Source of the DNA: an uncultured Bacteroidales bacterium
Lineage (GTDB): Bacteria; Bacteroidota; Bacteroidia; Bacteroidales; Bacteroidaceae
Reading direction: 5' to 3'
Length of the DNA: 59,460 bases
NCBI GenBank assembly: GCA_902779165.1
Contig: CACZAN010000015.1
Span: 1 to 59,460 of the forward strand
This document shows, in pieces, positions 39,371-58,848 of this stretch (the first letter of the stretch is position 1; the number at the start of each line of letters is the position of its first letter). A program made the position numbers and the translations under genes. The notes beneath the pieces were generated by a model that saw only the letters and a program-made list of their open reading frames with translations, made no database searches and was not told the origin of the DNA.

Positions 39371-39489
39371 CGAGTTCCAGAAAATTCCAAGTGTGGAACT
39401 CGCGAGTTCCAGTACTGGAACTCGGCAGTTCCATAGGTGGAATTCGCGAGTTCCATAGGTGGAATTCGAGAATACAATAGGGGAACTCG
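39371..39489. repeat. 22-bp tandem array 2 (palindromic)
   Basis: Units based on CGAGTTCCA...TGGAACTCG. The unit at 39403-39424 is a perfect 22-bp palindrome. The next at 39425 and 39447 (CAGTTCCA / CGAGTTCCA with TAGG and TGGAATTCG) are also 22 bp, and a 21-bp degenerate unit is at 39469. The first unit (39371-39402) is longer. The array lies between the convergent B3/4 and lipoprotein genes. The rest of 39237-39546 shows nothing. Confidence 0.85.
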
Positions 39490-39546
39490 ACGACACGACC
39501 CTATCTGAAAGCGGGGAGGAAGCAGATAAGGAATGCTTGACGGGTT

Positions 39547-39792
39547 TTACTTAGCCTGACTGCCGTTGTTGCGATACCGTGAGGGTGGGGGGCCATAGAG
39601 GACGCGCATACGTGTGGGATCATCGGGACGTATTTGGATGGGTCGCCCAGGAATGTTGGTGACGGATGATGAGTCCTTGGCGGCCTGACTCTCTTCCTTG
39701 GCAGCGCGTTTCCCCGACTTGCAGCCTCCGAATCCCAGCAGCACCAGCAGGCTGGAGAGGATGACGGTGGATAGTTTAGTAATCTTTTTCAT
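39547..39792 (-). CDS. Small lipoprotein of an rSAM/lipoprotein system
   Basis: An 81-aa lipoprotein: signal and lipobox LGFGGC with Cys24, then a Lys/Glu/Ser linker. Near the C-terminus is the motif RVLYGPPPSRYR (63-74). The partner lipoprotein across the radical SAM gene has RVLYGPAPTSYR. A short precursor with a conserved Tyr/Pro/Arg motif next to an rSAM/SPASM enzyme suggests this motif is what the enzyme modifies or recognises (inference). Third gene of the minus-strand operon, 70 nt after the rSAM gene. Confidence 0.75.
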   Translation of the reverse strand: MKKITKLSTVILSSLLVLLGFGGCKSGKRAAKEESQAAKDSSSVTNIPGRPIQIRPDDPTRMRVLYGPPPSRYRNNGSQAK

Positions 39793-39862
39793 AGGCTGTT
39801 GCTTTATTGCTTTATGTTTTATTGTGATAATCCGTTATTATGAAAAGTGGAGATGATGTTAA

Positions 39863-40939
39863 TTATTCGGTTTCCTCGAAACGTTTCATGTGGCAGAGAA
39901 TCGTTTGTCCGTTGTCATCGCGCAGGTGCATTCCGTTTCCCCGACAGTAGCGCCAGTGCCGACAGTCCTTACAGTCTCCCGTCCGTCGCCAGTCGAAGGT
40001 GCGATGTGGCTGGTAGCGGTGTTCCCAGACGTCCATGAAGTCGTCCTCATAGATGTTGCCCTGGTTATAATCGGAGCGGATGCTGGCACAGGCGGCAATG
40101 GCACCATCTGCCATAACGCTGCCCACGGTGATGCCCGCCTGACAATGGAAGAAATGATCGCGGACGTCGCCTTCGTAGTTTCCGAGGTATCCTTCGCAGC
40201 CGTAGCTGGCTTTGATGATCCCTTCCTTACGTGTTCTCTTAATGAACTCAAAGACTCCTCGAAACTCCTCGCCGGAGAGGCGCATATCGGGGTCGTTCTT
40301 GGCTCGTCCCATAGGGAAGATGGTGTAGATGCGCCATTCGCGGACGCCTTTCTGGATGAGGAAGTCGCGGATGGCGGGCAGTTCAGAGTAATTGCGGCGG
40401 TTGACGCAAGTTACGCAGTCGAAGGTGATGTCGGATTTGACGAGCAGGTCTATCGCCTGCGATGCCATGCGGAAGGCATCCTTGTGGCCACGCAACCAAT
40501 TGTGATTCTCTTCCAGCCCGTCTAAGCTTAAGGCCACACTGTGCATACCAGCTTCGCAGAGAGAACGGAAACGTTCGGGGGTGAGGTAGAGACCGTTGGT
40601 GACGAGTCCCCAAGGGAATCCGCGGCGGTAAATCTCTGATGCCACCTCCTCCAGGTCGTCGCGCAATAGTGGCTCTCCGCCCGTCAGAATGACGAAGACG
40701 TCGTGGGGATTGCATTTCTTCTGCACGCTGTCGAGTACTCGCAGAAAGTCCTCGGCAGGCATGTCTTCGACTCCTGCCACCCGTTTGCAGTCGCTGCCGC
40801 AATGTCGACAATGTACGTTGCAGCGGAGTGTGCATTCCCAGAAGAGCTGGCGCAAAGGATGCTCGCGCTCGACCTGTTGGTAGAGCTTGCGGGCAATCTC
40901 GAGTGCCAAGTGGCGGCGAAGAGTCAGTCGTTCACTCAT
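39863..40939 (-). CDS. Radical SAM/SPASM enzyme of an rSAM/lipoprotein system
   Basis: A 358-aa cytoplasmic enzyme. The 4Fe-4S/SAM motif is CNVHCRHC with C40, C44, C47. The core then shows LTGGEPLLR and SLDGLEENHNWLRG. The C-terminal SPASM domain has C323-x2-C326-x5-C332-x16-C349 for auxiliary clusters. SPASM enzymes install thioether or C-C bonds in peptides. From memory this fits the Bacteroidales family defined as the rSAM partner of a small lipoprotein (TIGR04133/TIGR04134), not sulfatase maturases or PqqE. It overlaps the upstream lipoprotein gene by 8 nt. Confidence 0.85.
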   Translation of the reverse strand: MSERLTLRRHLALEIARKLYQQVEREHPLRQLFWECTLRCNVHCRHCGSDCKRVAGVEDMPAEDFLRVLDSVQKKCNPHDVFVILTGGEPLLRDDLEEVASEIYRRGFPWGLVTNGLYLTPERFRSLCEAGMHSVALSLDGLEENHNWLRGHKDAFRMASQAIDLLVKSDITFDCVTCVNRRNYSELPAIRDFLIQKGVREWRIYTIFPMGRAKNDPDMRLSGEEFRGVFEFIKRTRKEGIIKASYGCEGYLGNYEGDVRDHFFHCQAGITVGSVMADGAIAACASIRSDYNQGNIYEDDFMDVWEHRYQPHRTFDWRRTGDCKDCRHWRYCRGNGMHLRDDNGQTILCHMKRFEETE

Positions 40940-41165
40940 CTGAGTTGTCGTTTTCGTTCTTCAGGATGACCTGTTCTTTCACAGCGGCTTCGTTGTTCTC
41001 GGGCACAGAGTCACGATAGCTTGTTGGCGCGGGTCCATAAAGCACGCGCTCGTACTCGGGCAATGGGCCGTACTCATCTGGAGTGGAACAGCTGAATGCC
41101 GTTCCGAATCCCAATAGTGCCAACAACCCTTGAAGCACCCTAAAATAAAGTTTTCTTGTTGCCAT
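40932..41165 (-). CDS. Small lipoprotein, first gene of the rSAM operon
   Basis: A 77-aa lipoprotein: basic start, hydrophobic stretch, cysteine at residue 26 in GTAFSC. Right after the cysteine come two related motifs: YGPLPEYER (32-40) and RVLYGPAPTSYR (40-51), 11 residues apart. The rest is acidic and hydrophilic. The second motif is shared with the lipoprotein at 39547-39792. Its stop overlaps the rSAM start by 8 nt, so enzyme and proposed substrate are translationally coupled. Confidence 0.8.
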   Translation of the reverse strand: MATRKLYFRVLQGLLALLGFGTAFSCSTPDEYGPLPEYERVLYGPAPTSYRDSVPENNEAAVKEQVILKNENDNSDE

Positions 41166-41183
41166 AATAGAGCTTATTTACTG

Positions 41184-41215
41184 CAAAAGTAGGCGTTTTT
41201 GCGGAAGGTAGCAAA
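41184..41215 (-). promoter_or_regulatory. Promoter of the rSAM/lipoprotein operon
   Basis: On the minus strand TTTG (41215-41212), 20 nt, TACTTTTG (41191-41184): exact consensus, 18 nt before the lipoprotein ATG at 41165. Confidence 0.75.
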
Positions 41216-41261
41216 CAATTCACAAAGTTTATGACGTTTATTGCAACTTTTCACATTTCTT

Positions 41262-41293
41262 TTTCGTCTATGACATAAAGAAGCCGTAACTTT
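41262..41293 (+). promoter_or_regulatory. Promoter of the MacAB-type exporter operon
   Basis: TTTC (41262-41265), 20 nt, TAACTTTG (41286-41293); one mismatch to consensus. Divergent from the rSAM operon promoter. Confidence 0.55.
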
Positions 41294-41337
41294 GCACCCG
41301 ATTTCGACATTAAACACTATAATCTATTCATACAGCA

Positions 41338-42003
41338 GTGATTCACCTCGAAGGTATCCACAAAACATACGCTGGCGCGCAGCCGCTTCATGTACTCAAA
41401 GGCATCGACCTCGATATTGCTGAGGGCGAACTGGTAAGTATCATGGGAGCGTCGGGCTCAGGCAAGTCCACCTTATTAAATATATTAGGAATCCTCGATG
41501 ATTACGATGAGGGAGATTACTATTTGGCAGGCACACTGATAAAGAATCTCAGCGAGACACGTGCTGCCGAGTACCGTAACCGAATGATTGGTTTCATCTT
41601 TCAGTCGTTCAACCTCATAGGTTTCAAGACTGCAGTAGAGAACGTGGAACTGCCGCTTTTCTATCAGGGCGTTGGGCGCCGCCGTCGTCATGAAATGGCG
41701 ATGGAGGAACTGGAAAAGATGGGACTCACAGACTGGGCTTGGCACTATCCTAATGAGATGTCTGGCGGTCAGCGACAGCGCGTAGCTATAGCCCGAGCAC
41801 TCGTTACACGTCCAAAGATTATTCTCGCCGACGAACCCACAGGAGCTCTGGATTCCAAGACGGGCGTAGAGGTTATGGAGCTGCTGAAACGGCTGAACCG
41901 TGAAGAACACATAACCATGATCATAGTCACTCACGATCCCTCGGTGGCCGCACAGACCAATAGGATTATCAGGATCAAGGACGGAGTGATAGAGCATTCA
42001 TAA
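41338..42003 (+). CDS. ABC transporter ATP-binding protein, MacB/LolD type
   Basis: A 221-aa ATPase with Walker A GASGSGKST, signature MSGGQRQRVAIARAL, Walker B IILADEPTGALDS and the H-loop VTHDPS. It powers the two FtsX-type permeases that follow. The start is GTG at 41338, giving the usual family N-terminus MIHLEGIHKTY. First gene of the exporter operon; 35 nt to the next. Confidence 0.93.
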   Translation: MIHLEGIHKTYAGAQPLHVLKGIDLDIAEGELVSIMGASGSGKSTLLNILGILDDYDEGDYYLAGTLIKNLSETRAAEYRNRMIGFIFQSFNLIGFKTAVENVELPLFYQGVGRRRRHEMAMEELEKMGLTDWAWHYPNEMSGGQRQRVAIARALVTRPKIILADEPTGALDSKTGVEVMELLKRLNREEHITMIIVTHDPSVAAQTNRIIRIKDGVIEHS

Positions 42004-42038
42004 TCCGAAATTCTTTTTAGGTTTTAAGTGAAACATAT

Positions 42039-43298
42039 ATGATAGAACTCATTGCTGAAATCTGGCAGACAGCACGGCGCAACAAGTTACGTACTTCGCT
42101 CACAGGATTTGCTGTGGCGTGGGGTATCTTCATGCTTATCGTACTGCTGGGAGCTGGCAATGGCCTCATCAATGCGAGCGAGGAGAACAACGACCGCTAT
42201 GTAGATAACTCGATGGTGGTCTTTGGTGGTATGACATCCAAAGCCCACAACGGTCTGAAGGAAGGACGCGACATCCAGTTAGACGACAACGACTTGTATA
42301 CCACTCAAAGCCGCTTCACCAAGAATGTTGACAAGGCAGGTGCCATTCTCTATGAGGGTGGTGCCACAGTCAGTTATGGCGAGAACTATGTCAGTAGCAG
42401 TCTTCGAGGTGTCTTTCCCGTAGATGCAGACATCAACAAAAAGGATATTGTGGCCGGTCGTTTCATCAACGATATTGACATCCGCGACCAGCGCAAGGTG
42501 CTCATCATCTCAGAGAATCAGGCTCGCGAACTCATACCTGGAAACCCTCGTTCCCTGCTGGGTAAGGTCGTGAAGGTGGGCGAGATGGCATTCACGGTAG
42601 CAGGCATTGAAAAGGAAGACAAAAGCCGCATGAGCACGGAGATTACCGTACCGTTTTCCACCTTACAAACCATATACAATCGCGGTAACCATGTGGGACG
42701 TATCACCTTCACCTTCCATGGGTTAGCAACAGAGGCGGATAACGAGGCTTTCGAGAAACGCTATCGTGCCACCATCAACCGCCAGCACCAGGCAGCACCA
42801 GACGATGAGGATGCCATTTGGATATGGAACCGCTTCACCCAGGCGATGAAAATGGAAAAAGGTACCCGTATTATCCGCACGGCGCTTTGGATTATTGGCC
42901 TCTTCACCTTGCTGAGTGGCATTGTGGGTGTATCTAATATCATGTTAATAACGGTTCGTGAGCGCACACGTGAGTTCGGAATCCGAAAGGCGATAGGTGC
43001 CTCACCTGCCAGCATTCTTCGAATAATCATCACCGAGAGCATCATCGTCACCGGCTTCTTCGGATATATAGGGATGTTGCTGGGCATTTGTGCAAACCTC
43101 TATATGGATGCCACCCTTGGCTCCAAACCCATCGAGACGGGACTGTTCACCACCACCGTATTCGTCAATCCTACCGTTGGCCTTGGCACCTGCTTCGGCG
43201 TCACTGTTGTTCTCATCATTGCGGGCACCATTGCTGGCCTCGTGCCATCGCTGAAGGCCGCACGAATCAGGCCCATCGAGGCGCTGAGGGCGGAATGA
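42039..43298 (+). CDS. ABC transporter permease, MacB/FtsX family (1)
   Basis: A 419-aa inner-membrane protein. One N-terminal helix (GFAVAWGIFMLIVLLGAGNGL) leads to a large periplasmic MacB-PCD domain. Three C-terminal helices follow, with the family motif RTREFGIRKAIGASPASIL and the end GLVPSLKAARIRPIEALRAE. MacB-type mechanotransmission exporters move substrates from the periplasm, not across the inner membrane. Confidence 0.9.
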   Translation: MIELIAEIWQTARRNKLRTSLTGFAVAWGIFMLIVLLGAGNGLINASEENNDRYVDNSMVVFGGMTSKAHNGLKEGRDIQLDDNDLYTTQSRFTKNVDKAGAILYEGGATVSYGENYVSSSLRGVFPVDADINKKDIVAGRFINDIDIRDQRKVLIISENQARELIPGNPRSLLGKVVKVGEMAFTVAGIEKEDKSRMSTEITVPFSTLQTIYNRGNHVGRITFTFHGLATEADNEAFEKRYRATINRQHQAAPDDEDAIWIWNRFTQAMKMEKGTRIIRTALWIIGLFTLLSGIVGVSNIMLITVRERTREFGIRKAIGASPASILRIIITESIIVTGFFGYIGMLLGICANLYMDATLGSKPIETGLFTTTVFVNPTVGLGTCFGVTVVLIIAGTIAGLVPSLKAARIRPIEALRAE

Positions 43299-43310
43299 GA
43301 GGTCTGAGGG

Positions 43311-43390
43311 TATAAAGTATAAAGTTTAGGGTTTAAAGTTTAGAGTTTAAAGTTTAAAGTTCAAGAGTTTAAGAGTATAAGAGTTCAAGA
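43311..43390. repeat. Low-complexity AAAGTTTA-type repeat between permease genes
   Basis: About 80 nt composed of variants of AAAGTTTA and GAGTTTAA, largely lacking C, between the two permease genes. A short similar run (GTTGAAAGATTGAAAAATTG) follows the second permease. Probably slippage-generated spacer. Confidence 0.75.
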
Positions 43391-43396
43391 AGATAT

Positions 43397-44638
43397 ATGA
43401 TAGACCTCGATTCCTTTCATGAATTGTTGCAGACGCTGCTTCGCAACAAGACGCGCTCCTTCCTCACAGGATTCGGCGTGTTCTGGGGCGTGTTCATGCT
43501 CGTTGCCCTTATCGGTGGTGGTTCGGGTATGAAGGAGCTGCTGAACAAGAACTTCGAGGGCTTTGCCACGAACTCCGCCATGATTTGGGAACAGGCGACA
43601 ACAAAACCTTATCATGGATTCCGCAAGGGACGTTACTGGAGTTTGACAACGGGCGACTTGCAACGCCTGCGCCTGCAAGTGCCGCAACTCGATGTCATAT
43701 CGCCGATTAACTCCAAGTGGGGAGTGCAGGCCGTCTGCGGCGACCAGAAGTACAGCAGCAACGTCAAGGGATTGCTGCCCGAATATGCACTGGTGGAAGC
43801 TCCTACCATGTACTATGGCCGCTTCATCAATGAGATGGACATCGCCCAGCAGCGTAAGGTTTGTGTCATCGGCAAGAAAGTCTATAAGACGCTTTTCCCA
43901 AAGGGCGGAGACCCCTGCGGAGAGCTTATCCGCTTGGATTCTGTCTATTACACGGTAATCGGTGTGGATTACTCTTCAGGAAACATGAACGTCAACGGTT
44001 CGGCAGAAGAGTCTGTTTCCATCCCGCTCTCTTTGATGCAGCGTGCATTCAATATGGGCGATAACATAGAGATGATAGCCATCACGGCTCGTCGCGGTAC
44101 GGCTATTAGTGACATCACGCCCCGTATCCGTGAAGTCATCGCACGTGCTCACGATATAGACCCTACAGACGAGAAGGCGGTAATGGTCTTCAATACAGAA
44201 GTATTGTTCGGCCTGCTGGATAACCTCTTTTCGGGTGTGGATCTACTCATTTGGCTGGTCGGCATAGGTACTCTGCTGGCAGGCGCTATCGGTGTGTCGA
44301 ACATTATGATGGTAACCGTAAAGGAACGTACCACAGAAATAGGTATCCGCCGCGCCATTGGCGCCACTCCGCGCGTCATCCTCTCGCAGATCATTTCCGA
44401 GAGTATATTGCTCACAACTGTAGCTGGAATGAGTGGAATCCTCTTTGCTGTGCTCATCCTACAGATGATGGAGCTTGGCTTCACGGAAGATGGTATAGTA
44501 CAATCTCACTTCCAGGTCTCATTCTGGACAGCTATTGGTGCAGCAGCTCTGCTTGCTGCTCTTGGTGTGCTGGCAGGATTGGCACCTGCAGGTCGGGCTA
44601 TGGCCATCAAACCCGTAGATGCCATGCGGGAAGATTGA
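43397..44638 (+). CDS. ABC transporter permease, MacB/FtsX family (2)
   Basis: A 413-aa permease with the same layout as its neighbour: N-terminal helix (FGVFWGVFMLVALIGGG), a periplasmic domain, three C-terminal helices with ERTTEIGIRRAIGATPRVIL, and the end GLAPAGRAMAIKPVDAMRED. Two different permeases imply a heterodimer driven by one ATPase, common in Bacteroidetes. Confidence 0.9.
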   Translation: MIDLDSFHELLQTLLRNKTRSFLTGFGVFWGVFMLVALIGGGSGMKELLNKNFEGFATNSAMIWEQATTKPYHGFRKGRYWSLTTGDLQRLRLQVPQLDVISPINSKWGVQAVCGDQKYSSNVKGLLPEYALVEAPTMYYGRFINEMDIAQQRKVCVIGKKVYKTLFPKGGDPCGELIRLDSVYYTVIGVDYSSGNMNVNGSAEESVSIPLSLMQRAFNMGDNIEMIAITARRGTAISDITPRIREVIARAHDIDPTDEKAVMVFNTEVLFGLLDNLFSGVDLLIWLVGIGTLLAGAIGVSNIMMVTVKERTTEIGIRRAIGATPRVILSQIISESILLTTVAGMSGILFAVLILQMMELGFTEDGIVQSHFQVSFWTAIGAAALLAALGVLAGLAPAGRAMAIKPVDAMRED

Positions 44639-44678
44639 AAAGTTGAAAGATTGAAAAATTGAATAATACTATAATAAA

Positions 44679-45815
44679 ATGAAAAAGGCTATTCGCGTCA
44701 TCCTTGCTGCCCTTGTGGCACTCATCTTTATCGGAACTTTTGTGTTCCTCTACAAGAACTCACTCCCGAAGCCTGTACAGTACGAGGTCTTCACTCCCGC
44801 TGTGCTCGACCTCTCACGAACCACTGTCGTTACGGGAAAGATTGAACCGCGCGATGAGGTGGCTGTGAAGCCCCAGATCAGTGGTATCATCACAGAATTG
44901 CTGAAGGAAGCCGGACAGCGAGTGGAAGCTGGCGAGGTGATTGCCAAGCTGAAAGTCATTCCCGATATGAACCAACTTGCTTCGGCTGAGAGCCGTGTGC
45001 GCCTATCCCAATTGAACCTGGAACAGGCAAAGGTGGATTACGAACGACAGAAGACACTCTACGACAAAGGACTTATCAGCGCCAACGACTACGAGAAGGT
45101 GCGGCAGAGCTACAACCAAGCTCGTGAGGAAGCCAGCATAGCTCAGGAGCAGTTGGAACTCACGCGTGATGGTGTCTCTGCCTCCAATGCCAGCAGCAGC
45201 AACACCCTCGTACGATCCACCATCAGCGGCATTATTCTGGATATTCCCGTGAAGGTCGGTAACTCGGTCATCCTCTCGAATACGTTCAATGATGGAACCA
45301 CAATTGCCTCTGTCGCAGATATGAGCAAACTCATCTTTAGGGGTAATATCGATGAGACCGAGGTGGGGCGCTTGACGGTTGGTATGCCTATGGACATCAC
45401 TATCGGTGCCCTTCAAGACCTCCGTTTCTCTGCTTCGCTGGAGTACATTAGTCCAAAGGCTACAGCTACAACGGGTGGTGCCAATCAGTTCGAGATTAAA
45501 GCTGCGGTAAGAGTACCCACAGATTCCCTTGGCGGTTCTGCCGCCCTCATCCGCAGCGGTTACAGTGCCACTGCCAATATCGTTCTTGAGAATGCCAACC
45601 AGGTCCTTACCATTCCAGAAGCAGCTATCGAGTTCTCTGGCGACAGTACCTTCGTCTATATTGTGAAGAATCCTGGTGCTAAAGAGCTCGAATACGAGCG
45701 CCGACAGGTTCAGACGGGCCTCTCGGATGGCATCAATATCGAAGTACGCTCAGGACTGAAAGCCGAGGAGCGCGTTCGCGGAGGCATCATCGTCAAGGAA
45801 GATGACAACAATTAG
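44679..45815 (+). CDS. Periplasmic adaptor of the exporter, MacA/HlyD-like
   Basis: A 378-aa membrane-fusion protein: N-terminal anchor helix (VILAALVALIFIGTFVFLY), biotinyl-lipoyl half (VAVKPQISGIITELLKEAGQRVEAGEVIAKL), helical hairpin, second lipoyl half (VRSTISGIILDIPVKVGNSV) and barrel. It links the permeases to an outer-membrane TolC-type channel, which is not encoded here. The operon ends at the following terminator. Confidence 0.9.
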   Translation: MKKAIRVILAALVALIFIGTFVFLYKNSLPKPVQYEVFTPAVLDLSRTTVVTGKIEPRDEVAVKPQISGIITELLKEAGQRVEAGEVIAKLKVIPDMNQLASAESRVRLSQLNLEQAKVDYERQKTLYDKGLISANDYEKVRQSYNQAREEASIAQEQLELTRDGVSASNASSSNTLVRSTISGIILDIPVKVGNSVILSNTFNDGTTIASVADMSKLIFRGNIDETEVGRLTVGMPMDITIGALQDLRFSASLEYISPKATATTGGANQFEIKAAVRVPTDSLGGSAALIRSGYSATANIVLENANQVLTIPEAAIEFSGDSTFVYIVKNPGAKELEYERRQVQTGLSDGINIEVRSGLKAEERVRGGIIVKEDDNN

Positions 45816-45861
45816 TCTCCTGATGAACGCCTGACGACAGTAAACTGACAAATATCAACAA

Positions 45862-45905
45862 AAAACCGCATGGGAGCTGAAAAACTACGGCTTTCGTGCG
45901 GTTTT
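45862..45905 (+). terminator. Terminator of the exporter operon
   Basis: Perfect 9-bp stem AAAACCGCA (45862-45870) / TGCGGTTTT (45897-45905), with a smaller internal AGC/GCT pairing, ending in T residues. Confidence 0.7.
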
Positions 45906-45920
45906 CTGCATGAATATGTT

Positions 45921-45928
45921 TATCTTTG
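45921..45928 (+). promoter_or_regulatory. -7 box of the aminotransferase gene
   Basis: TATCTTTG, 29 nt before the ATG at 45958 and just past the terminator. Confidence 0.5.
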
Positions 45929-45957
45929 CGGCCAAAAAGTGATAAAAAGAGAAGTAT

Positions 45958-50780: not shown

Positions 50781-50783
50781 ATT

Positions 50784-51059
50784 ATGGTATACACTGTCAG
50801 AATCTCGAACCAGTTCAAAAAAGACTTCCGTCGCTGCATCAAGCGAGGACTTAACATGAAGCTCATTACCGACGCAATGGACTTGCTCGCCGCCACGGGT
50901 ACGCTACCCATGAAGTATCGTCCTCACAAGTTGGTTGGCCAAAAGCAAGAGACATGGGAATGCCATATAGAACCCGACTGGTTGATGACATGGCAGCAGA
51001 ACGATACCGAACTCACGCTGCTCTTCCTTCAGACCGGCACACACTCCGACCTATTTTAA
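50784..51059 (+). CDS. YafQ-family mRNA interferase toxin
   Basis: A 91-aa RelE/ParE-superfamily toxin that cuts mRNA on the ribosome. The residues corresponding to E. coli YafQ's active site are all here: H48 in RPHKL, H61 in CHIEPDW, D65, W66, H87 in GTHSDLF and terminal F91. It therefore looks intact. Confidence 0.88.
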   Translation: MVYTVRISNQFKKDFRRCIKRGLNMKLITDAMDLLAATGTLPMKYRPHKLVGQKQETWECHIEPDWLMTWQQNDTELTLLFLQTGTHSDLF

Positions 51060-51135: not shown

Positions 51136-51142
51136 AGAAACT

Positions 51143-51248: not shown

Positions 51249-51270
51249 CGGCGGAAAACGAAAGAAAACT

Positions 51271-51522: not shown

Positions 51523-52025
51523 TTCTCTATCACGGTTCCTACCTGAGTGTGGCTGCACCACTCACAGGCGTAGGCCGTCGTGAACTCGACTTCGGTCCTG
51601 GCTTCTATGTCACCAACCTTCGAGATCAGGCCGAGCGTTGGGCTCGTCGCGTCTGCGTCATACGTGCTGTGGACACACCTATGCTCTCCACCTATGAGTT
51701 TGATGAATCCCAGCTCCCCTCCGATGTCTGCCGCTTGCGCCTGGAACACTACGATCAGCAGTGGCTTGACTTCATCGTAAGCAGCCGTCGTGGCGAAGAA
51801 CCTTGGCGCGGTTTCGACATCATCGAGGGTGGCGTGGCCAACGACCAAGTCATTGATACCGTTGAAGATTATTTTGCAGGACGCATCACAGCTGAGCAAG
51901 CCATTGGTCAGCTCCGATTTGCCAAACCCACCCACCAGATGTGCATCAGCAATCAGTTCATCGTCGACCACTGCCTGCATTTTATCTCCACTGAGCCAGT
52001 AGATGAGAAAGGAGGGCAGCCATGA
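51519..52025 (+). CDS. DUF3990-like protein, possible ADP-ribosyltransferase toxin
   Basis: A 168-aa protein beginning MILYHGSYLSVAAP. An N-terminal YHGS strand and DFGPGFYVTNLRDQAERWA resemble the NAD-binding core of small ADP-ribosyltransferase-fold toxins, to which I recall DUF3990 being related. Acidic ED/EE pairs occur later. It sits between two DUF3791-like genes with ATGA overlaps on both sides. Its C-terminus DEKGGQP repeats that of the upstream protein because the 21-nt junction is identical. Confidence 0.7.
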   Translation: MILYHGSYLSVAAPLTGVGRRELDFGPGFYVTNLRDQAERWARRVCVIRAVDTPMLSTYEFDESQLPSDVCRLRLEHYDQQWLDFIVSSRRGEEPWRGFDIIEGGVANDQVIDTVEDYFAGRITAEQAIGQLRFAKPTHQMCISNQFIVDHCLHFISTEPVDEKGGQP

Positions 52026-52222
52026 GAGACCAAGTTTTATGGCGAAAGACAGGGCGCATAGCCTCTCTGCTTGCCGACAGTCTCAATATAGACGCAGAGC
52101 GTGCCCTCGACATCCTCTACAACTCGCGCACCTACTCCCTGCTCATCAATCCCGAAAGTGGACTGCAGCTACAGAGCGACCAATACATCCTCATAGACCT
52201 GCTCCGAGAGCTGGAAGCTTAA
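52022..52222 (+). CDS. DUF3791-like small protein (2)
   Basis: A 66-aa protein (GRIASLLADSLNIDAERALDILYNSRTYSLLI ... YILIDLLRELEA) of the DUF3791 type, only distantly similar to the copy at 51271. It is coupled to the DUF3990-like gene by ATGA. Having one before and one after the presumed toxin is unusual. Confidence 0.7.
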   Translation: MRDQVLWRKTGRIASLLADSLNIDAERALDILYNSRTYSLLINPESGLQLQSDQYILIDLLRELEA

Positions 52223-52235
52223 TTGTCAGGACTAT

Positions 52236-52298
52236 ACCCCTCGTTTAACCCTCATAAATTGACGATGCCTATGGGCTGAGATAGATATAAAGGACATA
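52236..52298. repeat. Duplicated 3' cassette flank, copy 2
   Basis: Second copy of the block at 51072-51135, with GATAGATATAAAGG in place of GATAGAGATAAAAGG. It closes the second cassette. Confidence 0.9.
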
Positions 52299-52537
52299 TA
52301 GGATGAGCTCGAGCTTTGCTTGCAAAGAACGTCCACTTTTGATTCTTGTATTCCAAAATCGGCAAAATTGAAGAATATTGCAAGAACTGAAGTAGATAGT
52401 TCACGCCGTTCGGCGTGGGCATTTACTCGTTTAAGCAATATAGGTGTTTGCCGATACCTGGAATACGTAGACGAAGTAAATTGTCCACGTTTTCTTTTTG
52501 TGTGTATTCTAAGCAATAACTAAAAATCAATATAATT
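52299..52537 (+). other. Leader region of the BspA-like gene
   Basis: About 240 nt with no gene. It holds a perfect hairpin CACGCCG-tt-CGGCGTG (52402-52417). A/T-rich sequence follows, with no clear TAnnTTTG box near the ATG at 52538. A long structured 5' leader is possible but I recognise no riboswitch. Confidence 0.35.
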
Positions 52538-54672
52538 ATGAAGAAACAACTACTATTTCTATTCATGACACTGCCGACGATGATGGCAAGTGCATATGAT
52601 GTCATTGTTGGCGGTATTTACTATAATCTTGATACTGACAACATGACTGCAGAGATTACAAAAGGAGAAGGTAAACAGACTGGTGACATTGCCATTCCGG
52701 AAACGATTTCGGCAGGAGGGACTAACTATACTGTTTCATCCATCGGCGAAGAAGCCTTTGAGCTTTGCAAAAATCTGACGTCAATCACGCTTCCGGGGAC
52801 AATCACTTCTATTGGGAAATATGCTTTCTATCAGTGCCTAAGTCTAAAGGAAATAAACAAGTAAGCGAAATAGACGAGGGCGCCTTTCGTTATTGTTGGA
52901 GCTTAACGGCCATTGACTTGCCAAATTCCATTGATAGGATTTCTGCTCAACTCTTCGCTGACTGCCATGAATTGAGAACGGTTACAATACCCAGCACAGT
53001 TACTTCTATAGGTGAATGCGCCTTCTTGAACTGCTATAAAATCGCTGCAATAGCTCTTCCGAATGCAGTAACAAGTATCGGGAGGTCTGCATTCAAGAAT
53101 TGCGATTCACTTAATACCATTTATTTACCAGAAACCATTTCCAATGTGGGAGGGGCTGCGTTCTCCGGAACGCCTTGGCTATCCAACCTCCCAGAAGGAC
53201 TGATTTACATAGGAAAAGTAGCTTATGAGTTCAAAGGGACAATGGCGGACAACACTCAAATAGAATTAAGAGATGATACAAAGCAGATTGCGACAGGCGC
53301 TTTTTGGCAATGCAGCGGGCTGACCTCTATCAATATACCGGAAACCGTGGAAGCAATTGGAGCGCAGGCCTTTGGTGAATGTATCAATCTTAAGTCTGTC
53401 AATATTCCGCAAAAAATCGCCAATATTTCAGAAGGAACATTCTATAATTGTTCAAGTCTGAGTTCTGTTGAATTTCCTGAAGGATTGCAGAGTATAGGTA
53501 CTTCTGCATTCCAGAATTGTGGATTCACTTCCATAGAATTGCCAGATAAACTCACTACAATTGGAGACCATGCGTTCTACCTATGTAACGGGATAGAATC
53601 TATCCATATTCCCTCTTCCGTGACAAATATCGGTGAGAATGCATTCTGGAATGGAACCCTGAAATCCATTACCATAGCAGTAGACAATCCAGCATACGAC
53701 TCGCGCAACAACTGCAATGCAATTATAGAGAGTGCAACGAACACATTGATATTCGGATGCGAGAAATCCTTCGTTCCAGATGGTATTGAACACATCGCAA
53801 ACTTTGCATTCTGTGGATGTGAGGGTCTGATGTCTATTTCAATGCCAGAGTCGTTGAAGGACATAGGTGAATTTGCTTTTGATTCATGCCCTCTTTTATC
53901 ATACGTAGAACTGAATGAAGGGCTTGAGATTCTAGGGAAACAAGCCTTTTGTAGTTGCCCTTCTATAAAAGAAATTGTCCTCCCTTCAACACTTATAGCT
54001 ATAGGCCAACATGCTTTTGCCAGTACTGGCTTGACTAGCGTAACCTCCAATATAGAGAATCCTTTCGCGATAACATTGGATGTCTTTAACCCCATTTTCC
54101 TAACTGCCACCTTATATGTTCCGGCCGGAACGAAGGAGAAATATGAGGGGGTTGATGCCTGGAATCGATTCTCGAACATTGTGGAAGTGACCAAGCAGTG
54201 TGGTGTGCCGACGATTGCATACCACGACGGCCAACTTAGATATGAATGCGATACGGATGGAGCAGAGTTCATCACTTCAATATCCGACGCAGACGTCAGG
54301 AATCATCTCGGAAGTATTATCAACTTAACTGCGACTTACGTAATTAAAGTATATGCCAAAGCCATCGGCTACAAGAACTCCGATGCCGCCACCGCCACCC
54401 TCTGCTGGATTGAAGCCGAGCCAAAGAAAGAAGGGATTGAAGACGGAGTCGCACAGATAGCGGCTCATCCCGTGCTGATTCAAAGAACGAGGGAAGGCCT
54501 GAGCATTACAGGCTCCCCTTCGGGCGTCCCTATCCTCATCTATGATCTTGGAGGCCGTATCCTTGCTTCTGCTACGGCAAACGATGGCGAAACGCGGATT
54601 GACGTTAAGACTGACAGCAGAATGGTTGTCGTCCAAGTCGGCAACACAGCGGCAAAGGTTTTTGCGAAGTGA
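52538..54672 (+). pseudogene. BspA-like leucine-rich-repeat surface protein, frameshifted
   Basis: The first frame (52538-52864) gives a signal peptide (MKKQLLFLFMTLPTMMASA) and the first repeats, stopping after LSLKEINK. The remaining repeats continue in the -1 frame from about 52855 (KQVSEIDEGAFRYCWSLTAIDL) to 54672. Repeats of about 23 residues (IGEEAF..C.NL.SITLP.TITSIG) are the BspA/treponemal LRR type, used in adhesion. The C-terminus has a beta domain and the tail IYDLGGRILASA. Repaired length is about 711 aa. No canonical slippery heptamer is at the junction, so mutation or read error is likelier than programmed shifting. Confidence 0.8.
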
Positions 54673-54694
54673 ACCTCTTACATATCTACAATAG

Positions 54695-54731
54695 GAGAAC
54701 TCTGCCCATGTGAATGTGTGGTGGAGTTCTC
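54695..54731 (+). terminator. Terminator of the BspA-like gene
   Basis: Stem GAGAACTC / GAGTTCTC followed by TGTTTT, 23 nt after the stop codon. Confidence 0.6.
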
Positions 54732-54835
54732 TGTTTTGAGCTGAATATTCCTAAAGTATGTGAAAAAGTAGGGACATATAGGTTTTACGGAGATAATAAT
54801 AGGGAAATGATGCAGGGAATGTCGGGAAAAAGAGG

Positions 54836-54843
54836 TAAATTTG
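54836..54843 (+). promoter_or_regulatory. -7 box of the 344-aa gene
   Basis: TAAATTTG, 28 nt before the ATG at 54872. Confidence 0.45.
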
Positions 54844-54871
54844 CAGTTGAGAATTTAAGAAACTAATAGAC

Positions 54872-55906
54872 ATGGAAAATAGTATGATGAGCGCAACGTA
54901 CATACCATCGCGACCTCCCTATCAGATCATCATGTATGAAAACAAGATTGGAGTGCAGATTGGCACACAGAGAATTACGCTGGTTCGTAGAAACCCGTTT
55001 ATAACAGAAACACACGATTATCCCGTAGTTGCTGTCGAGGACCGTTTGTCGGCACTCCAAGACCCGGGCTATACGTCCGATGTCTGTACTGAAGGTGAGG
55101 TCTGGGACAACATAGAATCTAAGCAGGTGACAATCCTTTGCAAACTCGGAGAGCAACTGCAATGGCAGGATTTCATCAGAATGCTATGGCTTGACCACAG
55201 CCGTTCTGGTAGCAGAATACAGAAAATAAAGAAGGTGCAGATATTTCAGAAGTTGTTGAAGTACAATGGAAGTATGAGTCTGCCTGATCCCGGCTTGCAT
55301 ATCATCCATCTTCATTCAGAATCATTTGCTGACAAGCCTAAGGTGGTGCGTTCTATGAAAGACGATACTTTTGCATTGAATGTGGAGTGGACAGATGACC
55401 TTGATGAGTTGGAACAGCGAATAGTAAGCGATCTTTTGGAATACTTGTTGATTATTTCACCGAGGACCAGCACTAAATACTGGATGCTGGCTTATGAAAC
55501 GGAGGAAGGACATCTGCAACCTCTGGCTACTAAGCTGAACGCCAACGCCAAGGCGACCCGATTCCATAACACGCTGATGGCTTCTTTTACAATTCGGGCC
55601 ATACCTACTTACATGGACAAGGATACAACATTGGTGTTACCCGAATCGCTAATTGATGAGAATTTAGCCAACAAGCTGAGACCTATCTTTTATGGTGATG
55701 AGGATGAGGTAAGGGCTTTTCTCAATAAAATCGTGAAAGAAGGGAAGAATGCAAAGCCAACCGAAATTACGGGGTTGGTCAATGAGTTATTAAAAAAACG
55801 AATAATCTCCCCAAAAAGTTGTAAGCGTCCATTATATACCGTTTTACGTGATGCAAAACTTTATTTAAGGAGTGAGTCGAACTGGAACTCTCAGGTAAAG
55901 AATTGA
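54872..55906 (+). CDS. Unknown 344-aa protein
   Basis: A soluble-looking protein with no signal peptide or membrane segment. Predicted alpha/beta character: an N-terminal beta-rich part (YQIIMYENKIGVQIGTQRITLV), then mixed segments, and a C-terminal helical part (VNELLKKRIISPKSCKRPLYTVLRDAKLYL) like a small winged-helix end. Base composition is more AT-rich than the operons to the left. It stands alone with its own promoter and terminators, beside toxin modules and element genes, so it may be accessory. Family not recognised. Confidence 0.65.
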   Translation: MENSMMSATYIPSRPPYQIIMYENKIGVQIGTQRITLVRRNPFITETHDYPVVAVEDRLSALQDPGYTSDVCTEGEVWDNIESKQVTILCKLGEQLQWQDFIRMLWLDHSRSGSRIQKIKKVQIFQKLLKYNGSMSLPDPGLHIIHLHSESFADKPKVVRSMKDDTFALNVEWTDDLDELEQRIVSDLLEYLLIISPRTSTKYWMLAYETEEGHLQPLATKLNANAKATRFHNTLMASFTIRAIPTYMDKDTTLVLPESLIDENLANKLRPIFYGDEDEVRAFLNKIVKEGKNAKPTEITGLVNELLKKRIISPKSCKRPLYTVLRDAKLYLRSESNWNSQVKN

Positions 55907-56016
55907 TAATGCTTGTGATATAATCAATAAAGGGTATGATATAGCTCATCCCAAGATGGAAGACTCATGCTTAATCCTCTGCACTTTCGGGTGTGGGGGA
56001 TTATTGCATTTAGAAG

Positions 56017-56074
56017 ACTTGTACAACTTGTAGAACTTGTACAATAACTTGTGGAGGACTTGTATTTACTTGTA
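56017..56074. repeat. Iteron-like ACTTGTA direct repeats
   Basis: Six direct copies of ACTTGT (five of them ACTTGTA) start at 56017, 56026, 56035, 56047, 56058 and 56068, that is 9 to 12 bp apart, close to one helical turn. They precede the RepA-like ATPase operon. They could be initiator or regulator sites. The rest of 55907-56254 holds the promoter below and a GGCAC/GTGCC stem near 56155-56172. Confidence 0.6.
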
Positions 56075-56134
56075 TTTTTCTTTATAATTCAAAAAGGCCG
56101 ATTTGTGTCCCACGCACTTATTGCACTTTATTTG

Positions 56135-56142
56135 TACCTTTG
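56135..56142 (+). promoter_or_regulatory. -7 box of the RepA-like operon
   Basis: TACCTTTG, 112 nt before the first ATG (56255), implying a long leader. Confidence 0.5.
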
Positions 56143-56254
56143 CGCCAACTTTTGAGGCACGAAGCCGCGTGCCAATTATGAAGCGGTGGAAAAGCAGGGG
56201 AGCGTCGGCAAGTAAACCTGAGACCACTTAACTTCCGAAAATAAAAACACGATT

Positions 56255-56431
56255 ATGAAAAAGGAAGTTAAAAGCACCGAGGGCCAGCGAGCTCTCATCG
56301 CGGCCTACGAGGCCATTCAAGACCAACTGCCTGAGACCCCTTCCAGCGCATGGAGCGCTTGGGTGAAGCTCGGAGAGCAGGCGGAACGTCGCATGTCGTA
56401 CCTTAAAAGTCTGTGGTCATGGAAGAGATGA
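56255..56431 (+). CDS. Small basic protein upstream of the RepA-like ATPase
   Basis: A 58-aa open frame starting MKKEVKSTEGQRALIAAYEAI and ending LKSLWSWKR. It is helical in appearance, with a clean ATG after an A-rich leader, and overlaps the ATPase start by 13 nt. Overlap, composition and promoter position support a real gene. Function unknown; possibly an accessory to the replication-type ATPase. Confidence 0.6.
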   Translation: MKKEVKSTEGQRALIAAYEAIQDQLPETPSSAWSAWVKLGEQAERRMSYLKSLWSWKR

Positions 56432-57585
56432 AGATGCATGAGGAGGCCATGGTCAGCTCGACAACAAAGGCTGCGAAGGTGGCGGATGTGGTCAGCGACA
56501 AGCTGAACCCAGAAGCGGTGGCACAGGTACTGAAAGCCATCGAGATTGTGAACTGCGCCGACGAGGAGGAGCCGCAAGGCTTGTTTCTGGTTGGCGGTGT
56601 GGAAGTGCTTCCGCGGCAGTCGGTGAACATCGTTGCGGCACAGAAGAAGAGTGGCAAGACGAACTTTGCGGGACTGCTGATGGCGGCTTGCGCTTCGGCG
56701 CAACGTCAGGTCTTCAACGGGCTCGTGTGTTGCACGCAGGATTCTACAAAGGTACTGGTGGCCGACACGGAGCAGCCTCTGAAGGACGCTCGAAGGACGT
56801 TGCGCCGCGCCATGAAGACGGCGGGCTTCGGCTACGACGAGCAGTGGTCTGACCACGGCATCAACGTGCTGAGCTTCAAGGACATCGACAGCACCGAGGA
56901 GACGGAGATGTTGGTGGAGGGGCAGAAGGTGATGATGCGCGTGCAGCGTCTGCTGTTGGAAGAGGCTGTGAAGCGCATTCATCCCGACCTACTCATCATC
57001 GACGGCATCGCGGACTTGCTGCAGAGCATCAACGACGAGGCCGAGGCGCGCGAGCTGATGCGTTTCCTCGACCGCCTGGCCTGCGAGTACAACTGCGCCG
57101 TTGTCGGTATGTTGCACCTCAACTACGGCAGCGGCAAGATTGGCGGCTGGGCTGGCACTCAGGCGAACAAGAAGTTCACGGACTGCTTCACCCTGCGGAA
57201 AAAGAACGGCTACTTCGAAGTCGTACACGAAGGGCGCGGCGCAGAAGCTCCGAAACTCAGATTCCGCATCCTGTGTCCCCCGGGCGACAAGTTCGGATGG
57301 TGGGAGTATGTGCCTGACAACGAAATCCTTGTAACGACCGAGGACATGAAGCGGCAGGAGCTTGTGACGATGCTGGAAGGTGCGCCGTTGCCTTGCAAGA
57401 ATGCGGTGCTCGTCCACTGGATCATGAGCAAGGACCACCATCCCAGCCAATCTACAGCCGACCGCCTGCTCCGCCAGTGCAAGGAGCAAGGTATCCTCCA
57501 AAGCCACAAAGAAGGCCGCTGTTCCATCTGGAACTGGGCAAAGGAAGAGGATGCCGAGGAGGCGGAAATGGAGTTCGACGATTAG
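56419..57585 (+). CDS. RepA-like AAA ATPase of a mobile element
   Basis: A 388-aa RecA-fold ATPase. The P-loop is AAQKKSGKTN (K80) and Walker B LLIIDGIADLL (D195). A later segment (CAVVGMLHLNYGSGKIGGWAGTQANKKFTDCFTLRK) is typical of RepA/AAA_25-type helicases of plasmids and integrated elements. The C-terminal 80 residues look like a winged helix (NAVLVHWIMSKDHHPSQSTADRLLRQCKEQGIL). ATG 56419 is preferred to GTG 56413. It probably unwinds or loads at an element origin together with the next gene. Confidence 0.8.
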   Translation: MEEMKMHEEAMVSSTTKAAKVADVVSDKLNPEAVAQVLKAIEIVNCADEEEPQGLFLVGGVEVLPRQSVNIVAAQKKSGKTNFAGLLMAACASAQRQVFNGLVCCTQDSTKVLVADTEQPLKDARRTLRRAMKTAGFGYDEQWSDHGINVLSFKDIDSTEETEMLVEGQKVMMRVQRLLLEEAVKRIHPDLLIIDGIADLLQSINDEAEARELMRFLDRLACEYNCAVVGMLHLNYGSGKIGGWAGTQANKKFTDCFTLRKKNGYFEVVHEGRGAEAPKLRFRILCPPGDKFGWWEYVPDNEILVTTEDMKRQELVTMLEGAPLPCKNAVLVHWIMSKDHHPSQSTADRLLRQCKEQGILQSHKEGRCSIWNWAKEEDAEEAEMEFDD

Positions 57586-57651
57586 TGTCAACTGTCACCA
57601 CATATATATAAATTGACAGTGATAGTAATTGTTAACTACCTACCTATAAAT

Positions 57652-57692
57652 AGTGTCACGCCCGCCTATCTGTATAGGGGCGGGCGGACACT
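57652..57692 (+). terminator. Strong hairpin between ATPase and BT4734-like genes
   Basis: Stem AGTGTC...CGCCCGCC...TAT with matching ATA...GGCGGGCG...GACACT and small bulges. There is no T-tract after it, so it could be a regulatory or processing structure rather than a true terminator. GTCAACTGTCAC / TTGACAGTGA words just upstream add further symmetry. Confidence 0.55.
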
Positions 57693-57743
57693 GATAGGAA
57701 TAATCAAAAACAAATAATACTTTTTTAAATCGGTTGTACAACT

Positions 57744-58757
57744 ATGACTACCAATATCTTTAATCGGTTGATGACGTCGTTAAATCGCGTCACGCTGCAA
57801 GCCGCCGAACAGAACGGCGACAACATCAAGACCATCACCATCGGTCAGTTCGTGAGCCCTGAATATCAGGCGAATTATGCGCAGCAGATAGCACAGATCC
57901 GCGCACTGTGTCCCACACTTGAGGACAAGATCAAGAATGAGGACAGGGTGAAACAGCTGAAGGTGCGTTTGCCCGCAGGCATCATCTCCGGAGTGGCCGC
58001 GGATGGCATTGGACAGGACAATATCGTAGAGCGGAACGGGGTCATTTCCATCGACATAGATGCCAAGGACAACCCCGACATCCACGATTGGGAGGCGCTG
58101 AAACGCGACCTCGCTTCGCTGCCCTTCGTGGCCTACGCAGGCATCTCCGTCAGCGGACTGGGCGTCTTCGCCCTCATCCCCATCCTCGACCCTACGAAGC
58201 ACAAGGAGCACTTCGACTCCCTCGACCGCCGCTTTGCCGACTATGGTCTGAAGCTGGACCGTGCTCCCCAGAACATCTCCTCCAAGCGATTCGTCAGCTA
58301 CGACCCCGCGCCCGTGTGGAACACCGAGGCCGAGGTCTATGAGCAACTGGTGGAGGCGCCCTTAAACTCCTTAAACCCCTTAAACTCCTTAACCCCCTTA
58401 AACCCCTTAAACTCCTCGAACCCCTTAAACTCCTTGAACTCCTCTTTGGAACCGCGTCCGGGAATGTTGAAGCAGATGTTGCGCAACCTGATGATGCCGC
58501 TATCGGTCAACGACTTCGCGCCCTTCGACCTCGAAGACTTCCTGCATCGTCATGGCATTGAATATGAGGCGCGTCCGCGACAAGGGGGCACCCAGTACAT
58601 CGTGCACTGCCCCTGGGCCCACCTCCACAGCAGCCACAGTTATGCCGACAGTGCCCTCTTCCGCTACCCCGACGGGCGCATAGGCTACAAGTGCCTGCAT
58701 GACCACTGCGCCGACCGCACGTGGCATGACTTCCGCGAGTACTACGAGACGCAGTAA
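57744..58757 (+). CDS. BT4734/VirE N-terminal domain protein, primase-like
   Basis: A 337-aa protein. The first 190 residues match the BT4734-like N-terminal domain (GIISGVAADGIGQDNIVERNGVISIDIDAKDNPD ... YAGISVSGLGVFALIPI), found in VirE-type element proteins. A 28-residue L-N-S/P repeat linker follows (207-234). The C-terminal domain has a Cys/His pattern (VHCPWAHLHSSH ... CLHDHCADRTWH), like a zinc-binding primase finger. The helicase domain usual in VirE proteins is absent and may be supplied by the preceding ATPase. Confidence 0.75.
   Translation: MTTNIFNRLMTSLNRVTLQAAEQNGDNIKTITIGQFVSPEYQANYAQQIAQIRALCPTLEDKIKNEDRVKQLKVRLPAGIISGVAADGIGQDNIVERNGVISIDIDAKDNPDIHDWEALKRDLASLPFVAYAGISVSGLGVFALIPILDPTKHKEHFDSLDRRFADYGLKLDRAPQNISSKRFVSYDPAPVWNTEAEVYEQLVEAPLNSLNPLNSLTPLNPLNSSNPLNSLNSSLEPRPGMLKQMLRNLMMPLSVNDFAPFDLEDFLHRHGIEYEARPRQGGTQYIVHCPWAHLHSSHSYADSALFRYPDGRIGYKCLHDHCADRTWHDFREYYETQ
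58362..58445. repeat. 9-bp coding repeat (LNS/LNP)
   Basis: Nine 9-bp units based on TTAAACTCC or TTAAACCCC encode a Leu-Asn-Ser/Pro linker in the BT4734-like protein. Length changes by slippage would stay in frame. Confidence 0.9.
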
Positions 58758-58760
58758 CCC

Positions 58761-58848
58761 GTAACGTCCTCCGCCGAAAGACGTCACGTCCTCCACGAGA
58801 AGACGTGACGTCTTATTCCTCAGGACGTAACGTCTTCCACCAAAGGGC
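58761..58848. repeat. 22-bp tandem array 3 (4 units)
   Basis: Four 22-bp units start at 58761, 58783, 58805 and 58827, each opening GTAACGTC, GTCACGTC, GTGACGTC or GTAACGTC. Unit junctions form the odd palindrome GACGTNACGTC. The array begins 3 nt after the stop codon of the BT4734-like gene. Its sequence differs from arrays 1 and 2 but the period is the same. From 58849 to the promoter there is only A-rich sequence. Confidence 0.85.

What the first reader, a model, noticed from the sequence alone, without database searches (positions are those of the whole stretch)
39371..58848. Three arrays of different sequence share a 22-bp period and palindromic units
Arrays at 6850-7000 (CGTCCGTACG core), 39371-39489 (CGAGTTCCA/TGGAACTCG) and 58761-58848 (GACGTNACGTC) have no common consensus, yet all have 22-bp units built on palindromes, and two start 2-3 nt after a stop codon. 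Equal period with divergent sequence points to a common generating or maintaining mechanism, or a protein that reads shape and spacing. I know of no named element that fits. The span given covers arrays 2 and 3.
Basis: partly seen in the sequence, partly recalled or inferred. Interest (0 to 1): 0.8.

Follow-up and report, generated by a model that had tools for sequence, protein, structure and literature searches.

The report
HU-protein genes with private palindrome arrays
The three repeat arrays belong to a class of 22-base palindrome arrays that are probably the landing strips of a little-studied family of histone-like (HU) bacterial proteins: many of these protein genes carry their own palindrome array in front of them, and arrays of the same palindrome lie elsewhere in the same genome.

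Summary
All three arrays exist; a fourth (7023-7088) was missed. In 1.26 Mb of this genome 22 bp is the commonest period among noncoding arrays (27; next 8 bp, 21; shuffle 0). Units are palindromic, with a second symmetry centre 11 bp away. Congeneric species keep the period but use other palindromes.

The co-occurring gene is HU-HIG (PF18291), a DNA-binding family of the HU superfamily. In 15 genomes of the genus, 39 of 88 HU-HIG genes have a 21-23-bp array within 700 bp upstream and 2 downstream; background genes 23 of 823 and 19 of 386 upstream. Window array 3 lies upstream of such a gene (59089-59460). Dispersed arrays match HU-HIG arrays of their own genome (0 of 2000 permutations), and more similar HU-HIG proteins have more similar arrays (0 of 1000). 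In six other Bacteroidales genomes, 9 of 20 HU-HIG upstream regions hold such arrays.

Best reading: each HU-HIG paralog binds its own palindrome, one dimer every two helical turns, controls its own gene and acts at dispersed arrays. Binding is inferred. About half of HU-HIG genes lack an array, and the palindromes of window arrays 1 and 2 have no partner gene yet.

The parts
6848..6998 (.). Array 1, family E: 22-bp units with core ACGTCCGTACGT / ACGTCCATACGT and second dyad near TTGCAA
   Evidence: dyad test 0 of 200 shuffles. No HU-HIG partner found in this genome; core shared with the array before the G016 HU-HIG gene L205
6998..7013 (.). Single imperfect palindrome GTCTCACAAGTGATAC at the end of array 1; GTCTCA-N4-TGAGAC-like copies also stand beside arrays in L030 and L037
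   Evidence: 3 single copies in the sample, 2 in shuffled DNA: may be chance
7023..7088 (.).
   Evidence: dyad not significant (24 of 200)
39371..39495 (.). Array 2, family B: TGGAAYTCNNGARTTCCASYRS units with a leader GAGTTCCAGAAAATTCCAAG shared with seven other B arrays in this genome
58760..58848 (.). Array 3, family A: GACGTNACGTC units, upstream of the HU-HIG gene
   Evidence: L192; near-identical array and gene at G000:C23 (L197)
58950..58957 (+). TACCTTTG, fits the Bacteroidetes -7 promoter consensus TAnnTTTG (consensus recalled, not from a call)
   Evidence: such boxes stand in 63 of 88 HU-HIG upstream regions, 7 after shuffling
59089..59460 (+). HU-HIG gene, cut by the contig end (124 codons present); proposed binder of family A arrays
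   Evidence: PF18291 E 6.4e-20
57744..58757 (+). BT4734-like gene directly before array 3; BT4734/DUF3987-type genes also stand near HU genes in Parabacteroides and Bacteroides records
   Evidence: PF08800 E 1.1e-8

Best explanation
The arrays are cognate DNA sites of HU-HIG proteins. A genome holds several HU-HIG paralogs; many carry an array of 22-bp palindromes just upstream of their own promoter. A dimer probably sits on each palindrome and neighbours abut every two helical turns, so the period is fixed by the protein while the palindrome can change. The array at the gene most likely gives self-regulation; arrays of the same palindrome elsewhere would be places where the protein organises or silences DNA. 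SHOWN by sequence analysis: excess at 22 bp, double symmetry, upstream association, same-genome matching, protein-array co-variation. INFERRED: binding, cooperativity, autoregulation, function of the dispersed arrays.
For: 39 of 88 HU-HIG genes (ORF of at least 140 aa) in 13 of 15 congeneric genomes have a 21-23-bp array within 700 bp upstream, 2 of 88 downstream; background genes 23 up and 52 down of 823 here, 19 and 20 of 386 in relatives. Shuffled HU-HIG upstream regions: 0 in each of 20 rounds. Period assigned there: 22 in 37, 21 in 7, 20 in 3, 23 in 1. In 16 of the 26 with a TAnnTTTG box the array ends 23-52 bp before it. Dispersed arrays match own-genome HU-HIG arrays: mean best score 25.8 against 11.2 with genome labels permuted, 0 of 2000; even the 21-bp period of G013 is shared by its HU-HIG array (L226) and its dispersed array (L125). 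Protein similarity follows array similarity across genomes (Spearman 0.257, 0 of 1000). Nine of 20 upstream regions from six other genomes of the order hold such arrays, shuffles 0 in 10 rounds. Symmetry is kept at the DNA level: no G-U excess.
Against: No binding data. 49 of 88 HU-HIG genes show no array by this scan. Families B, C and E of this genome, so window arrays 1 and 2, have no partner among its HU-HIG genes; 8 of 16 dispersed arrays of relatives have no own-genome partner above score 14, and both G003 arrays match a G016 gene's array better. Only 27 of 48 HU-HIG arrays beat 95% of column shuffles for symmetry. Some close proteins have unlike arrays (L203 and L217, 74% identical). 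HU proteins are better known for structure than sequence preference. The structure model of the window protein failed (mean pLDDT 37) and no solved homologue was found.
Confidence: 0.8

Rival explanations
1. The arrays bind another protein, for example a regulator common to HU-HIG genes and other loci, and HU-HIG genes are merely its main targets.
For: The upstream position fits any regulator; many HU-HIG genes lack arrays.
Against: The palindrome differs from paralog to paralog within one genome and follows the HU-HIG protein; one regulator would give one palindrome per genome.
Confidence: 0.12
2. The arrays are minisatellites carried by miniature transposable elements, like BrickBuilt of Porphyromonas gingivalis, with no protein partner of their own.
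For: At least six B arrays lie between inverted arms of about 100-130 bp; eight share a leader; like other dispersed repeats, the arrays favour convergent regions (22-bp arrays 13 of 35, other repeats 16 of 35).
Against: The window arrays' flanks are not repeated as elements in the sample: two of six flanks have short partial matches, four none. BrickBuilt is one sequence family; here unlike families share period and symmetry and are tied to HU-HIG genes.
Confidence: 0.04
3. REP elements moved by a RAYT transposase.
For: Short intergenic palindromes, species-specific, in several families; the genome has Y1 transposase matches, one flanked by its own other repeats.
Against: PF01797 has no match in 8 of 12 congeneric genomes, including 6 of the 8 in which I saw 21/22-bp arrays (these genomes are incomplete). 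B and C palindromes are almost never single.
Confidence: 0.02
4. RNA hairpins: terminators or 3'-end stabilisers for convergent genes.
For: In this genome 13 of 35 convergent, 14 of 213 tandem and 1 of 73 divergent intergenic regions hold arrays.
Against: No excess of G-U over A-C among broken pairs on the sense strand (26 against 56 tandem, 45 against 55 convergent; relatives 14 against 20 and 11 against 6). Other dispersed repeats share the bias; relatives show it weakly (4 of 22, 7 of 100, 3 of 35). HU-HIG arrays lie upstream of genes.
Confidence: 0.04
5. Neutral arrays born by replication slippage or fold-back copying, palindromic because of the copying mechanism.
For: The genome also has many 7-9-bp intergenic arrays.
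Against: Those are placed differently (convergent 1 of 35, divergent 5 of 73). Slippage predicts varied periods and no tie to HU-HIG genes.
Confidence: 0.03

Closest known systems
BrickBuilt minisatellite/MITE of Porphyromonas gingivalis (PMC4596501; abstract, section 5 and passages seen)
   Same: Intergenic 23-nt tandem units at 19 places in a Bacteroidales genome; 11 of the 19 with leader and tail. Some B arrays here also have a shared leader and inverted arms.
   Different: One sequence family, one species; the word palindrome does not occur in the paper. Here at least six families per genome with palindromic units, many without recognisable element ends, and a tie to HU-HIG genes.
REP/BIME repeats and RAYT transposases (PMC3733652; listing and start of abstract seen)
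   Same: Short intergenic palindromes, species-specific, several families.
   Different: Head-to-tail at 22 bp; no dependence on a Y1 transposase.
HU/IHF nucleoid proteins, including autoregulation of E. coli hupA and hupB (as told in PMC3969353; passages seen)
   Same: The proposed binder is of the HU superfamily; HU genes are known to act on their own promoters, and hupA has an inverted repeat there.
   Different: There a single inverted repeat and structure preference; here tandem 22-bp palindromes that differ for each paralog.
P. gingivalis HU PG0121 and its 77-bp inverted repeat (PMC3969353; passages seen)
   Same: An HU protein of the same order studied with an inverted repeat.
   Different: PG0121 is a ~10-kDa HU with highest affinity for looped and bulged DNA; no tandem palindromes.
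Iteron and partition-site arrays of plasmids (recalled)
   Same: Tandem sites about two helical turns apart for a cooperative protein.
   Different: Here tens of chromosomal places and several unlike palindromes per genome.

Membership tests
HU-HIG proteins (PF18291), for the gene at 59089 | Match to the Pfam model above its cut-off | tested here: met
   71.9 bits, cut-off 26.2
HU-HIG proteins (PF18291), for the gene at 59089 | HU fold in a structure or reliable model | tested here: inconclusive
   single-sequence model, mean pLDDT 37
HU-HIG cognate array (proposed kind) | 21-23-bp palindromic array upstream of a HU-HIG gene or sharing the palindrome of one in the same genome | tested here: met
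   array 3 met; arrays 1 and 2 not met in this genome
HU-HIG cognate array (proposed kind) | Bound by the protein | not testable with these tools
   needs EMSA or ChIP-seq
REP/RAYT | A RAYT (Y1) transposase in the genomes that have the repeats | tested here: not met
   no PF01797 match in 6 of 8 array-bearing congeneric genomes; G000 has 3 matches; genomes incomplete
REP/RAYT | Terminal GTAG or CGTC tag | not tested
   no tag count was made
BrickBuilt-type MITE | Leader, tail and terminal inverted repeats around the array | tested here: inconclusive
   found for part of the B arrays; no full element at the window flanks
CRISPR array | Repeats separated by unique spacers | tested here: not met
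   units are contiguous and linkers repeat too; cas genes were not searched for

The most novel reading that the evidence does not exclude
HU-HIG proteins and their arrays form a diversifying addressing system: several mutually independent, sequence-specific nucleoid proteins of the HU superfamily in one cell, each assembling as a two-turn-phased filament on its own palindromic arrays spread over the chromosome, organising gene ends or silencing mobile elements, with the protein-palindrome code rewritten from species to species.
Probability: 0.4. Interest if true: 0.92.

Novelty: new variant of a known kind. Interest (0 to 1): 0.8.

Why it matters
HU proteins are textbook nucleoid proteins with little sequence preference, and the expanded HU-HIG set of Bacteroidetes has, as far as I know, no established function. 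The arrays give each paralog a candidate binding site that can be read from sequence, so binding, autoregulation and genome-wide occupancy become directly testable. Close pairs with different palindromes (L203 and L217, 74% identical; L180 and L195, 83%) offer a natural experiment on how such a protein changes specificity. It would also explain a class of intergenic minisatellites.

Tried and rejected
RAYT/REP was tested with PF01797 and rejected as a general cause. RNA hairpins were tested by G-U counts and not supported. A function at convergent gene ends was first favoured, then weakened because other dispersed repeats share the bias and relatives show it less. BrickBuilt-like element: true of part of the B arrays only. 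No hypervariable DNA-binding paralog family was visible when the sample's ORFs were clustered, and a home-made HU model found only 2 HU-HIG genes in the sample; the Pfam model found more. Rfam gave nothing in the window. The structure model failed, so no fold search was made. HU-HIG relatives in viral contigs: none confirmed, one query. The winged-helix-bearing paralog L207 had no plasmid match. The comparison of L203, L235 and L217 gave 23 scattered candidate specificity positions and no clear cluster.

Limits: gene calls are my own. HU-HIG arrays were sought at 29 of 44 matching bases, dispersed arrays at 31 of 44, plasmid loci at 28 of 44. The background counts all genes of at least 100 codons, including genes inside operons with no upstream gap. 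The array similarity score is a plain ungapped local score. Of 127 PF18291 matches in 15 genus genomes 100 were examined; the 27 left out are all weaker than E 2e-10. Families A-H were named by eye. The fixed A-to-C junction in mixed arrays was read by eye and not tested.
Full report
CHECK OF THE OBSERVATION. The three arrays are real and have period 22. A fourth 22-bp array lies beside the first at 7023-7088. For arrays 1-3 none of 200 column-shuffled versions is as symmetric; for the fourth 24 of 200 are. Over 30 noncoding 22/23-bp arrays of the sample so tested, 17 exceed 95% of their shuffles. I took 60 stretches of 20 kb from the same genome and scanned them with the window, 1,259,460 of 3,589,683 bases. 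Noncoding arrays by period: 22: 27; 8: 21; 7: 19; 9: 7; 23: 3; 24: 2; 21: 1; 20: 0; one dinucleotide shuffle gave none of any period. Sorted by eye, the palindromes fall into at least six families: A GACGTNACGTC, B GGAAYTCNNGARTTCC, C ACGTATATACGT, D GGAACTATAGTTTGT, E ACGTCCGTACGT, H AACCATCGTGATGGTT. B and C occur almost only in arrays at exactly 22 bp (long B form 39 of 39 in arrays, spacing 22 in 29 of 30; C 38 of 45, spacing 22 in 25 of 27); D 19 of 21 in arrays; E 6 of 9; A cores are in arrays in 18 of 44, the single ones at about the level of shuffled DNA.

ANATOMY. Besides the main dyad a second symmetry centre lies 11 bp away: above shuffled linkers in 28 of 39 arrays of this genome and 13 of 15 of relatives. 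Such an array reads almost the same on both strands. Where symmetry is broken, G-T pairs are not favoured over A-C on the sense strand (tandem 26 against 56, of which 14 A-C from one array; convergent 45 against 55; relatives 14 against 20 and 11 against 6), so RNA pairing is not what is kept. The plainest reading is one protein dimer per 22 bp, with outer contacts also symmetric.

EVOLUTION. Stretches of 15 congeneric genomes gave 15 further 22-bp arrays in 7 of them, with other palindromes, for example AAGACGCGCGTCTT (G001), GGTTAACC (G012), ACGTGCGCACGT (G018), and a 21/42-bp array in G013; the stretches of the other genomes, some of them short, gave none. A two-unit B pattern occurs in one other record of the 84,980-species collection, a 5.9-kb contig titled Bacteroidaceae bacterium RGIG3567, goat rumen (the tool may leave out this genome's own records), 95.6% identical to this genome over 4.1 kb. 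A one-and-a-half-unit pattern occurs 69 times (33 forward, 36 reverse) in this genome and in one of 60 other congeneric genomes, at that same contig. Positions also turn over: G003 has an array directly after purA where this genome has none.

THE PARTNER GENE. A Pfam scan of 73 genes next to arrays gave one family with 3 members, HU-HIG; all others had 1 or 2. I searched PF18291 in 15 genus genomes (127 matches), examined 100 of the matches and kept the 88 with an ORF of at least 140 aa. 39 of 88, in 13 of 15 genomes, have a 21-23-bp array within 700 bp upstream, 2 downstream. The same test on other genes gave 23 upstream and 52 downstream of 823 in this genome, 19 and 20 of 386 in relatives. 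Per intergenic region of at least 120 bp the background is also low: tandem 14 of 213 and divergent 1 of 73 here, 7 of 100 and 3 of 35 in relatives. Two further copies in this genome cut by contig ends, one of them in the window, also have arrays. Shuffled upstream regions gave 0 in 20 rounds. Periods assigned in these regions (lags 14-30): 22: 37, 21: 7, 20: 3, 23: 1, all others together 14. Where a TAnnTTTG box stands in the last 260 bp (26 of 39), the array ends 23-52 bp before it in 16. In the window the order is BT4734-like gene, array 3 (58760-58848), TACCTTTG (58950), HU-HIG start (59089).

MATCHING. Sixteen dispersed arrays of relatives were compared with 46 arrays upstream of HU-HIG genes. 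The best own-genome match averages 25.8, with genome labels permuted 11.2; 0 of 2000 permutations reach the observed value. Clear own-genome partners (33 or more): L097 (G018), L109 (G016), L114 (G001; a G017 array is closer still), two arrays of L124 (G012) and L125 (G013); weaker L107 and L106 (20, 16); the other eight have none above 14, and both G003 arrays fit a G016 gene's array best. In this genome, of 42 arrays listed, 3 are the HU-HIG arrays themselves and 14 others match one of these at 19 or more and better than any foreign one: family A with the C15/C23 gene, D with C14:50351. Families B, C and E have no partner here: the other HU-HIG genes of this genome show no array upstream, and one is cut at its start. 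The core ACGTCCATACGT of window array 1 is also that of the array before a G016 HU-HIG gene (L205). Across genomes more similar HU-HIG proteins have more similar arrays (Spearman 0.257, 0 of 1000). Exceptions are informative: L203 and L217 are 74% identical with unlike palindromes, L203 and L235 70% identical with the same one.

SPREAD. Ten genomes of other families of the order gave 21 PF18291 matches, none below E 5.9e-11 and nearly all about 90-110 aa, as for ordinary HU; 378,720 bases from these genomes held no 22-bp array, but one 23-bp array (L136) and three 21- or 42-bp repeats (L150, L151, L153), not tested for symmetry. Among 149 genomes of the order, own included, 21 have PF18291 at E up to 1e-12. 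From six of the others I fetched 20 upstream regions; 9 hold arrays with a 21-23-bp lag, in 5 of the 6 genomes; shuffles 0 in 10 rounds. Taking own-genus and other-genus HU-HIG arrays together, 27 of 48 beat 95% of column shuffles for symmetry. Among 7 plasmid records of named Bacteroidales with such genes, Segatella hominis NZ_CP137560.1 has a 22-23-bp array within 160 bp of the gene; one Phocaeicola massiliensis and one Parabacteroides distasonis record have arrays about 500 bp upstream; Bacteroides finegoldii has a 20-bp repeat; three have none.

WHAT THE DISPERSED ARRAYS DO is open. In this genome they favour convergent regions (13 of 35) over divergent ones (1 of 73), but other dispersed repeats do so too (16 of 35, 5 of 73), and relatives show it weakly (4 of 22, 3 of 35). 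Several B arrays lie inside a larger inverted-repeat element, so some arrays may travel as cargo. Chromosome organisation, silencing of mobile DNA, or a sink for the protein all remain possible.

NOVELTY. Self-regulating DNA-binding proteins with operator arrays are a known kind; an expanding HU-superfamily set with a private, two-turn-phased palindrome array for many of its paralogs is not known to me. Nine searches of the held open-access library listed no report of it; I saw listings and abstract starts, plus parts of PMC4596501 and passages of PMC3969353. Subscription papers are mostly not held, and a 2017 comparative paper on HU/IHF clades, recalled from memory, could not be read.

Noticed in passing
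window 7023-7088: A fourth 22-bp array (CAGCCTGCTG units) directly beside array 1, of a family seen nowhere else in the arrays I looked at.
   Followed up: partly
L018 2150-3429 (G000:C18), L064: A weak Y1-transposase match (354-aa frame, below the Pfam cut-off) flanked on both sides by 44- and 64-bp repeats holding GTCGCCCTTTAGTGCGAC: looks like a separate RAYT/REP system.
   Followed up: partly
L014, L026, L032, L034, L054, L156: A dispersed hairpin element of about 145 bp with ACACTCCGAA repeats lies near several 22-bp arrays.
   Followed up: partly
L015, L026, L027, L047, L162: B arrays sit between inverted arms of about 100-130 bp (TGCAGTAGATTTTTC motif).
   Followed up: partly
window 43313-43385, 44634-44667; many stretches: Intergenic arrays of 7-9-bp units are common in this genome and, unlike the 22-bp arrays, not enriched between convergent genes.
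   Followed up: partly
window 58360-58443: A 9-bp array (CCTTAAACT) lies inside the BT4734-like reading frame.
   Followed up: no
window end (C15) and G000:C23 end: Both contigs end in nearly the same HU-HIG gene (98% over 124 aa) with the same array, so the assembly probably breaks at a recent duplication.
   Followed up: partly
L154 (contig JAFSXQ010000089.1, RGIG3567), same place as G051:C266: A 5.9-kb contig 95.6% identical to this genome sits in a genome otherwise free of the B pattern; it may be misbinned.
   Followed up: partly
L323 893-997 (Phocaeicola massiliensis OY725985.1): An array with CACGTATATACGTG units, like family C of this genome, about 500 bp before an HU gene in a distant species.
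   Followed up: no
window 50784-51059: YafQ-type toxin gene (PF15738, E 8e-29).
   Followed up: no
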